DNA from: Bacteroidaceae bacterium | GTDB taxonomy: Bacteria > Bacteroidota > Bacteroidia > Bacteroidales > Bacteroidaceae | Direction of reading: 5' to 3' | Length of the DNA: 35,133 nucleotides | Assembly: GCA_017472635.1 (NCBI GenBank) | Contig: JAFUPU010000068.1 | Location: 1 to 35,133 of the forward strand | Made by a program: the position numbers and the translations under genes | The notes under the pieces: model-generated | What the model was told of the DNA's origin: nothing | Database searches by the model: none | Seen by the model: the letters and a program-made list of their open reading frames with translations, nothing else | In this document: positions 32,775-35,133 of the stretch, piece by piece | How the letters are laid out: the number at the start of each line of letters is the position of its first letter | Position numbering within the stretch: position 1 is the first letter of the stretch

Positions 32775-34913
32775 ATGGCAACATTACAAAAGATTAGAAG
32801 TAAAGGCGTGTTGTTGGTCGCTGTAGTCGGTATTGCTCTTTTTGCTTTCGTGGCAGGAGATGCATGGAGAGTCTTGCAGCCCCACACAGGCGTGTTGGAT
32901 GCAGGAGAAATCGATGGTGAAGCTGTATCAGCTCAGGATTTCTCAAAAATGATTGATGAATATACTGAGGTCTACAAGTTCACTCGTCAGGTATCATCAG
33001 TTACCGATGAAGAGATGAGCCAAATCAAAGACGAGGTTTGGAATTCATTGGTTTCAAACAAACTCATCGAAAAAGAGGCTGAAAAGTTGGGCTTGCAGGT
33101 TACTGATGCCGAGGTGAAGGCTGTGTTGAATGCGGGTGTACACCCCATGTTGCAACAGACTCCGTTCACCAACCCTCAGACTGGAAAGTTTGATGTGGAT
33201 ATGCTCAAGAAGTTCTTGAACGAATATGCAACAATCGACTTGAGCCAGATGCCTCAGCAATATGCAGAATATTATCAGTCGTTGAGCAACTATTGGAATT
33301 TCGTGGAGAAACAAATCCGTCAAGGATTGCTTTCAGAGAAATACCAGAATCTGATTGGAAAGTCTCTCATCTCAAATCCTGTTGCAGCAAAGGCTGCTTT
33401 CGATGGACGTGGCAATGAAATGAACCTGATGGTTGCTGCAATCCCTTATACAGCAGTGCCCGATTCAACCGTAAAGGTTACCGAGAGCGACTTGAAGGAT
33501 ATCTACAATAAGAGAAAAGAGGAGTTCAAGCAATATGCCGAGAGCCGTGATATCAAGTACATCGATGTAGTGGTTACTCCGAGCGCTGAAGACCGTAATG
33601 AGATTATGAATGAAGTGACTGAATACGCAGGTCAGTTGAAAGACATGGATACTGAGTTTGCTTCATTCGTTCGTTCAGCAGGTTCTACGGTGGCATACTC
33701 TGAGGTTCCCGTCAAATCAATGGTATACCCCAGCGATATCGCCGGCAAGTTGGATACAGCTAAGGTAGGTGTGGTTGTTGGTCCTTATCACAATCAGGCA
33801 GACGACACTTACAATGCATTCAAGGTTATTGCTAAGGTAAACGAACCCGATTCTGTTCAGTATCGTATGATTCAAGTGGCAAATGCCGATTTGGACAAGA
33901 CTAGAACATTGGCTGATAGTATCTACACTGCTTTGCAGGGTGGTGCTGACTTCGTGGAGTTGGCTCAAAAGTATGGTCAAGAAGGAAAAGAGGTTTGGAT
34001 GACAGCCCAACAATATGAAGGTGCTCCGCTTGAAGGTGACAATGCCAAGTACATCAATACATTGAACAATACAGCCGTTAAGCAACTCGTAAATCTGGAG
34101 TTGGGACAGGTGAACCTGATTATCCAGGTGCTCGACCGTCGTGCCAATGCCGATAAGTACAAAGTGGCTGTAATCAAGCGTCCGGCTGAGTTCAGCAAAG
34201 AGACTTATAATAAGAAGTATAACGAGTTCAGCCAATTTGTAGCCGCTAACAATACATTGGAGAAGATTGAACAGAACGCAGAAGAGAGCGGCTTCCGTTT
34301 GTTAGAGCGTCGCAACTTCTACAGCAACGAACACTATATCAGCAACATCCCTGGTACTCGCGAGGCACTGAAGTGGGTGTTTGAGGCTGAAGATGGTGAG
34401 GTTTCTCCGTTGTATGAGTGCGGAAACAACGACCACATGTTGGTAGTAGCTGTTACAGACATTAATGAAGAGGGATACATTCCTTTTGAAAAAGTGAAGA
34501 GCGAGCTGATGTCTGAAGCAATCCGCAATAAGAAAGCCGAGAAATTGATGGCTGACATGGCACAAATCACCAATATGGCAAGCGCTAAAGCTGTAGAGAA
34601 CGTGGTAACCGATACATTGAAACACGTAACTTTCAATGCTCCGGCTTATATCTCTATCACACGCACCAGCGAACCTGTATTGGGAGCTTATGCTGCCAAG
34701 CTTGAAGCAGGAAAGGTAAGCCAACCGCTTAAGGGTAATGGAGGTGTTTACGTTGTTCAACTGTTGGATAAAGAAGCTCCTAAAGCTACATTCAATGCTG
34801 CAACCGAAGAGGCTGCTCTGAGCACTGCCAACGTAAGACGTGTCATCAGCAACGTGATGAACGACCTCTACTTGAAGGCAGATGTAAAAGACGATCGTTA
34901 TCTCTTCTTCTAA
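32775..34913 (+). CDS. SurA/PpiD-type peptidyl-prolyl isomerase
   Basis: 712-residue membrane-anchored periplasmic folding factor of the PpiD/SurA-N type. Residues 12-29 (VLLVAVVGIALFAFVAGD) are the single N-terminal membrane helix, with the short cytoplasmic MATLQKIRSKG. The SurA-like chaperone region follows, with DEVWNSLVSNKLIEKEAEKLGLQVTDAEV (about 94-122) and repeats of this helical pattern. A parvulin-like PPIase region is placed at about 365-475 (YRMIQVANADLDKTRTLADSIYTALQGGADFVELAQKYGQEGKE). A second, poorer parvulin-like region ends the protein (SAKAVENVVTDTLKHVT ... GAYAAKLEAGKVSQPLKGNGGVYVVQLLDKEAP). Such proteins help outer-membrane proteins fold. It is the last gene before a strong terminator. 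Confidence 0.92.
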   Translation: MATLQKIRSKGVLLVAVVGIALFAFVAGDAWRVLQPHTGVLDAGEIDGEAVSAQDFSKMIDEYTEVYKFTRQVSSVTDEEMSQIKDEVWNSLVSNKLIEKEAEKLGLQVTDAEVKAVLNAGVHPMLQQTPFTNPQTGKFDVDMLKKFLNEYATIDLSQMPQQYAEYYQSLSNYWNFVEKQIRQGLLSEKYQNLIGKSLISNPVAAKAAFDGRGNEMNLMVAAIPYTAVPDSTVKVTESDLKDIYNKRKEEFKQYAESRDIKYIDVVVTPSAEDRNEIMNEVTEYAGQLKDMDTEFASFVRSAGSTVAYSEVPVKSMVYPSDIAGKLDTAKVGVVVGPYHNQADDTYNAFKVIAKVNEPDSVQYRMIQVANADLDKTRTLADSIYTALQGGADFVELAQKYGQEGKEVWMTAQQYEGAPLEGDNAKYINTLNNTAVKQLVNLELGQVNLIIQVLDRRANADKYKVAVIKRPAEFSKETYNKKYNEFSQFVAANNTLEKIEQNAEESGFRLLERRNFYSNEHYISNIPGTREALKWVFEAEDGEVSPLYECGNNDHMLVVAVTDINEEGYIPFEKVKSELMSEAIRNKKAEKLMADMAQITNMASAKAVENVVTDTLKHVTFNAPAYISITRTSEPVLGAYAAKLEAGKVSQPLKGNGGVYVVQLLDKEAPKATFNAATEEAALSTANVRRVISNVMNDLYLKADVKDDRYLFF

Positions 34914-34938
34914 GAGATTGACCGAATATATTTCTCTG

Positions 34939-34976
34939 AGGATGTACTACTCTCCATGTAGTACATCCTTTTTTTG
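34939..34976 (+). terminator. Terminator of the PpiD-like gene
   Basis: Perfect 12-bp stem AGGATGTACTAC (34939-34950) with GTAGTACATCCT (34958-34969), 7-nt loop, followed by a T run to 34975. Confidence 0.9.
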
Positions 34977-35030
34977 TGCTTCAACCTTATCACCATGCAA
35001 ATGCTATCCGAAGAGAATATAAACCCGCTT

Positions 35031-35066
35031 CTTTTGTCAGGTGCAACATGTTGCACCTGACAAAAG
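35031..35066. repeat. Perfect 36-bp palindrome
   Basis: Both 18-nt halves are exact complements with no spacer: CTTTTGTCAGGTGCAACA (35031-35048) and its reverse complement (35049-35066). There is no T tract after it, so it is not an ordinary terminator, and a loopless 18-bp stem is unusual for an RNA hairpin. It lies 20 bp upstream of the -33 element of the promoter at 35087-35119, which fits a protein-binding site. Confidence 0.8.
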
Positions 35067-35086
35067 ACAACTTTCTTGAGATTTCG

Positions 35087-35119
35087 TTTGGAATGTAAAC
35101 CCATTTTGGATTATCTTTG
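35087..35119 (+). promoter_or_regulatory. Promoter firing out of the right end of the window
   Basis: TTTG at 35087-35090, a 21-nt spacer and -7 TATCTTTG at 35112-35119. The predicted start near 35126 would serve a plus-strand gene beyond the end of the window. Confidence 0.62.
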
Positions 35120-35133
35120 CAAAGCGTAAACTC

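What the first reader, a model, noticed from the sequence alone, without database searches (positions are those of the whole stretch)
35031..35066. Perfect spacerless 36-bp palindrome upstream of an outgoing promoter
Seen directly: an 18-nt half-site, CTTTTGTCAGGTGCAACA, is followed at once by its exact reverse complement. A perfect 36-bp palindrome is far beyond chance, and it lies in neither a gene nor a terminator (the PpiD-like terminator ends 55 bp earlier). It sits about 77 bp (centre) before a predicted start at about 35126, where many activators bind. I infer an operator for a symmetric regulator of the next gene, or a palindromic element used by a recombinase or nuclease. I do not recognise it as a described site.
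Basis: partly seen in the sequence, partly recalled or inferred. Interest (0 to 1): 0.75.

Follow-up and report, generated by a model that had tools for sequence, protein, structure and literature searches.

The report
Palindrome in an IS3 transposon remnant
The perfect palindrome is real, but it lies in the broken-off right end of an ordinary IS3-type jumping gene, over the last codons of its transposase and just before a promoter that points outwards, so it is more likely a hairpin of that element than a control switch of the host.

Summary
The palindrome is real: 38 bp without spacer, 35030-35067; the next-longest arms in the window are 7 bp. It lies 66 bp from the end of the contig, which is the whole window. 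The last 141 bp (34993-35133) recur with 1 mismatch in another species' MAG (L003) beside different neighbours and are the inner part of an IS3-family right end. The palindrome covers the last codons and stop of a transposase C-terminus (MQMLSEENINPLLLSGATCCT*). Then come 31-bp subterminal repeats with an outward Bacteroides-type promoter and, in L003, the terminal repeat. The contig stops after exactly 141 bp of the repeat, probably an assembly overlap. The host-operator reading is not supported; the promoter reading is, but the promoter belongs to the element. The palindrome is most likely the 3' hairpin of the transposase transcript (inferred). A G352 copy lacks it, so a chance inverted duplication is nearly as likely. 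In passing: 19 of 22 right ends of this IS group have 22 or 44 bp as best period in the outside flank, from arrays of palindromic units of unrelated sequence; such arrays also occur without the IS.

The parts
32775..34913 (+).
   Evidence: ORF list; homologues in same-genus genomes
34938..34970 (+). Terminator-like hairpin with T-run after that gene
34993..35133 (+). Inner part of the right end of an IS3-family element, truncated on the left at 34993 and cut by the contig end on the right
   Evidence: 141 bp with 1 mismatch in L003:1158-1298, no further match to the left; related copies
34995..35060 (+). C-terminus of an IS3 OrfB transposase: MQMLSEENINPLLLSGATCCT, stop TGA at 35058-35060
   Evidence: 7 synonymous and 3 non-synonymous differences over 14 codons to the G352 copy; the G352 peptide aligns with an intact IS3 OrfB, 50% over 20 aa, E 0.002 in a four-sequence database
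35030..35067 (.). Perfect 38-bp spacerless palindrome, possible RNA hairpin of 17 pairs with a 4-nt loop
35070..35100 (-). 31-bp subterminal repeat unit, starting GTTTAC
   Evidence: shown there for L003
35101..35131 (-). 31-bp subterminal repeat unit, starting GTTTAC
   Evidence: shown there for L003
35087..35119 (+). Outward Bacteroides-type promoter: -33 TTTG (35087-35090), 21 bp, -7 TATCTTTG (35112-35119)

Best explanation
The palindrome belongs to the right end of an IS3-family insertion sequence whose left part is lost and which lies just after the PpiD-like gene's terminator. Read outwards: transposase C-terminus, palindrome over its stop codon, outward promoter inside 31-bp subterminal repeats, then (past the contig end, seen in L003) the terminal repeat. 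Shown: the repeat, its two contexts, the promoter motif, the hairpin potential, and by comparison the transposase end. Inferred: in the intact element the palindrome is the 3' hairpin of the orfAB mRNA. IS3 elements such as IS911 move through a circle in which the right and left ends join, so an outward promoter at the right end would fire across the junction into orfA; a strong hairpin between the end of orfB and that promoter would stop transcripts from running round into it. In the remnant only the outward promoter could still act, on whatever lies beyond the contig end. The IS3 identity alone I hold at about 0.92; the confidence given is for the whole statement.
For: 141 bp shared with another species in another context. 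A related G387 element of about 1.5 kb carries orfA and orfB, OrfB passing the NCBIfam IS3 cut-off, 202.8 bits against 160. Peptide link G352 to that OrfB, and codon pattern window to G352. Promoter motif in 16 of 17 loci. RNA fold -26.8 kcal/mol, z -6.4; listed as terminator-like, 2 found in the region against 0.2 expected. The L051 element also has a strong fold after its OrfB stop, z -4.1.
Against: No intact copy of this exact element was found, so the window peptide is linked to IS3 only through G352; the direct alignment of the L003 peptide to OrfB has E 1.4, and OrfA of the G387 element scores below the cut-offs. The T-run after the palindrome is poor. The G352 copy lacks the palindrome (22-bp gap), and the L047 and L102 stretches fold weakly (z -2.0 and 0.3), so a hairpin there is not general to the group.
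Confidence: 0.45

Rival explanations
1. By-product: a short imperfect inverted repeat at the orfB end was made long and perfect by template switching or an inverted duplication in one lineage, and it does nothing.
For: The related G352 copy has only a weak CTATTT/AAAAAG-like inverted repeat at this place and a 22-bp gap in the middle of the palindrome. The window frame runs 7 codons beyond the G352 end.
Against: Both known copies keep all 38 bp, but they differ by 1 in 141 bp overall, so this says little.
Confidence: 0.35
2. A small mobile unit of its own (219 bp in L003): 34993 is a true left end, and the piece moves with help from the transposase of an intact IS.
For: The window and L003 diverge at 34993, and the 141-bp overlap suggests that copies in the window's own metagenome diverge there too.
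Against: No terminal repeat at the left boundary. L003 reads NTPMQM where the G352 copy reads KTPMQM and L051 KTPMEV, which suggests that L003 keeps a few more bases of orfB, so the two left ends are probably not the same. The branch at 34993 is equally expected if an intact IS and a truncated copy coexist.
Confidence: 0.12
3. Operator of a symmetric host or element regulator that acts on the outward promoter.
For: Perfect symmetry about 77 bp before the predicted start, beside a conserved promoter.
Against: One site in the own genome, none in 60 other relatives; the G352 copy keeps the promoter without the palindrome; it overlaps a coding end.
Confidence: 0.06

Closest known systems
IS3-family insertion sequences (for example IS911)
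   Same: orfA/orfB with an rve-type OrfB, TG-starting terminal repeats, outward promoter at the right end; IS911 makes its transposase from a junction promoter, and complete outward promoters are reported for the IS3 family (PMC9330008, passages)
   Different: The window copy is truncated; the promoter has the Bacteroides form and lies in 31-bp subterminal repeats; the perfect palindrome at the orfB end was not seen in the other copies that could be read there (G352 only)
IS1397, ISKpn1 and ISPsy8 (IS3 elements inserting in REP palindromes; PMC1525189, passages)
   Same: IS3-family elements found beside intergenic palindromic repeats
   Different: Those target REP sequences of their host; here the arrays differ in sequence even within one genome and share a 22-bp period and palindromic build; in the two elements with both ends seen an array was detected only on the right side
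Intrinsic terminator
   Same: Strong stem-loop after a coding end
   Different: 7 of 17 pairs are G-C and the following T-run is weak

Membership tests
IS3 family | DDE (rve) OrfB of IS3 type | tested here: met
   Met for the related G387 element (NF033516, 202.8 bits, cut-off 160). In the window only the C-terminal 21 residues are left, linked through G352.
IS3 family | OrfA with helix-turn-helix | tested here: inconclusive
   G387 element: PF01527 21.6 bits, gathering score 24.1; NF033516 21 bits, cut-off 160. Not present in the window.
IS3 family | Terminal inverted repeats | tested here: met
   Right end in L003 and relatives; both ends in L051 and L060. Beyond the contig end in the window.
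IS3 family | Short target-site duplication | tested here: inconclusive
   L060 has GTT on both sides, L051 does not. Not testable in the window.
Intrinsic terminator | GC-rich stem followed at once by a T-run | tested here: inconclusive
   17 pairs, 7 G-C, tail CAACTTTCTT
Operator of a symmetric regulator | Sites at several promoters or kept at orthologous genes | tested here: not met
   One site in the own genome (65% complete), 0 of 60 other relatives at up to 3 mismatches
REP-targeting IS | Insertion in or beside palindromic repeats | tested here: inconclusive
   19 of 22 right ends of the group have 22 or 44 bp as best period outside, but the window copy ends before that place

The most novel reading that the evidence does not exclude
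The element belongs to a Bacteroidaceae IS3 group that inserts, in one orientation, beside intergenic arrays whose units share a 22-bp period and a palindromic build but not sequence, so that the transposase or a partner recognises an architecture (hairpin or cruciform spacing, or a protein bound to it) rather than a motif. The 38-bp palindrome inside this copy could then be a mimic of such a unit, used in self-recognition or target immunity; nothing tested here bears on that last step.
Probability: 0.25. Interest if true: 0.65.

Novelty: new member of a known kind. Interest (0 to 1): 0.3.

Why it matters
As given, the finding suggested a new regulator site; it is instead a piece of mobile DNA, and readers of MAG contig ends should expect such pieces. 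The element group may matter more: IS3 elements with a conserved host-type outward promoter, which could switch on neighbouring genes, next to 22-bp palindromic arrays that are frequent in the two Bacteroidaceae genomes sampled and that six paper searches (listings only) did not show as described.

Tried and rejected
Searches for parts of the element found no viral contig, and the L003 element region found no phage or plasmid record. A transposase-end pattern matched 1 of 393 order genomes (the own one), 5 of 399 family genomes with one mismatch allowed and 1 viral contig. Of the five, G154, G193 and G348 are unrelated genes, leaving the own genome and G352; the viral hit is out of frame in another gene. 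Relatives of L003's genome gave 2 of 100: itself and a weak 33-bp match. The genus of G108 gave 5 of 19. No intact copy of this exact element was found. In one search only 2 candidates per genome were scored, so its 14 of 399 is a lower bound.

I first thought the palindrome might be a junction of two IS ends; rejected, because in L003 the terminal repeat lies further out and has another sequence. I first took the common contig starts in G108, G218 and G292 for a biological end; rejected, because the shared lengths are 141 (G218), 140 (G292) and 140 (G108 C29/C17), as in an assembly overlap. G108 C29/C70 shares 114 and the G352 pairs 126 and 127, so the value 141 does not hold for every pair.

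The second query (L102B) was translated in a wrong frame with stop signs dropped; its rows are meaningless and not used. The last of the 12 genome searches went to relatives of L003's genome, so a transposase protein search of the multi-copy MAGs was not run.

Full report
Observation. The 36-bp palindrome is exactly where stated and extends to 38 bp, 35030-35067. The next longest spacerless palindromes in the window have 7-bp arms; 100 Markov sequences reached 10 at most. The window is one whole contig, G000:C17, of a MAG 65% complete, and the palindrome ends 66 bp from the contig end.

It is part of a repeat. The 26-bp core occurs in one contig of the genome collection, JAFURM010000008.1, a Bacteroides MAG from roe deer rectum (records very near the own genome may be left out there). 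The window's last 141 bp match it with one difference, and the match stops at 34993. The left neighbours differ: the PpiD terminator here, an intergenic stretch beyond a tRNA-end-like repeat there. The genomes are different species: a stretch with rpsP is 77% identical. Matches to the L003 element were found in 14 of 399 family genomes, the own one included (several are short, and only 2 candidates per genome were scored) and in 2 of 15 same-genus genomes, the own one included.

What the repeat is. Related copies share an end that reads, from outside inwards, TGCAG or TGAGG, TGTACTGA, then AGTTGACAG, with 31-bp direct repeats behind. In G387 a related end belongs to an element of 1506-1507 bp with orfA and orfB. 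Its OrfB passes the cut-off of NF033516, IS3 family transposase (E 9.6e-60), and of the rve domains; its OrfA scores below the cut-offs. The G352 copy reads AINMKTPMQMISEENKNPLLFV* and aligns with that OrfB (50% over 20 aa, E 0.002 in a database of four sequences). The window reads MQMLSEENINPLLLSGATCCT*. Over 14 codons it differs from G352 by 7 synonymous and 3 non-synonymous changes, as expected of coding sequence. The direct alignment of the L003 peptide with OrfB is not significant alone (E 1.4). The palindrome overlaps the last seven codons and the stop.

Why the contig ends there. The window holds exactly 141 bp of the repeat. Two G218 contigs share exactly 141 bp before their flanks diverge; pairs in G292 and G108 share 140, another G108 pair 114, and G352 pairs 126 and 127. 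For the window this fits an assembler that breaks at a multi-copy repeat with an overlap of 141. It is an inference; the assembler is not named.

The promoter. In 17 loci that I chose because they hold this region, TTTG stands 21 bp before TATCTTTG in 16, pointing outwards; L044 lacks the -33 part. The anchor of that script contained the -7 part, so it tests only the -33 part and the spacing; the -7 part is invariant in the 8 aligned copies. L045 and L082 are one locus in two genomes, and four of the 17 are from G352. The pattern with spacers of 18-24 occurs 6 times in the window on both strands. TTTG and TANNTTTG define B. fragilis promoters, and complete outward promoters are reported in IS elements including the IS3 family (PMC9330008, passages).

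The hairpin. Folded as RNA the palindrome gives -26.8 kcal/mol, z -6.4, and the scan lists it as terminator-like with a poor T-run. The L051 element also folds strongly after its OrfB stop (z -4.1), but the L102 (z 0.3) and L047 (z -2.0) stretches do not. The G352 copy has a 22-bp gap in the middle of the palindrome. The G108, G218 and G292 contigs start just past this place, so whether they carry it is not known. A hairpin role is plausible, not established; a chance inverted duplication is nearly as likely.

The operator reading. There is one site in the own genome and none in 60 other relatives at up to three mismatches. The next gene is not in the window.

Left boundary. The window copy starts at 34993. 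L003 reads NTPMQM, the G352 copy KTPMQM, L051 KTPMEV, so L003 probably keeps a few more bases of orfB. Two truncations so close together are not explained.

Beyond the window. Among 22 right ends from 10 genomes with at least 90 bp of flank, the best period between 8 and 59 outside the terminal repeat was 22 or 44 in 19; in L003 it was 45, with 22 second; L083 and L084 showed none. Not counted, because the expression did not match them: L044 and L102, which show such units by eye, and L049 and L050, which do not. The arrays differ in sequence even within one genome: in G108 units with AGTACTCGAGTACT, TTCTGACTGCGAGCAGAA and TTCGCGAACGACCGCG. Such arrays also stand alone: 12 in 396,215 bp of G387, 2 of them next to the IS, and 25 in 400,000 bp of G009, none near such an end, against 0-3 at each other period from 15 to 31, and 0 in the window; Markov controls gave 0 and 0. 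Of these, 12 of 12 and 23 of 25 lie mostly outside ORFs of 150 aa or more. In the two G387 elements with both ends seen, an array was detected only beside the right end. IS3 elements that target REP palindromes are known (PMC1525189, passages). Six paper searches, seen as listings only, showed nothing on 22-bp arrays of this kind.

Verdict. A real feature of ordinary nature: an IS3-family remnant. The palindrome is most likely a transposase-end hairpin or a by-product. The array association is the part worth following.

Noticed in passing
L041-L043, L045, L047, L048, L051, L052, L054-L057, L060, L071, L072, L077, L079, L081 just outside the right end; without IS in loci among L103-L142: Intergenic tandem arrays of palindromic units with a period of 22 bp, of different sequence from array to array: 12 in 396,215 bp of G387 and 25 in 400,000 bp of G009. 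19 of 22 right ends of this IS3 group have 22 or 44 bp as best period outside.
   Followed up: partly
window 34993; L003 left of 1158: The IS remnants of two species appear truncated within about ten bases of each other, some 36 bp before the palindrome; chance or a deletion hot spot is not explained.
   Followed up: partly
window 32775-34913 and G000:C45 (L148:4203-6332): The bin holds two PpiD-like genes, 69% identical. The C45 one is 99.7% identical over 675 aa to that of G002, the window's is not close to any relative compared, so the bin probably mixes two species.
   Followed up: partly
L003:4022-4195 and many places in G061: A repeat of about 174 bp with inverted ends (AGAGTCTGTTTTGAATTTATTCC) accounts for 63 of the 69 matching rows in G061, opposite-strand rows of the same copy included; only 40 of 109 candidates were scored.
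   Followed up: no
L003:746-793 and G061:C28:80306-80354: A tRNA-end-like stretch of 48 bp is repeated directly about 8.4 kb apart, which suggests an element integrated at a tRNA gene.
   Followed up: no
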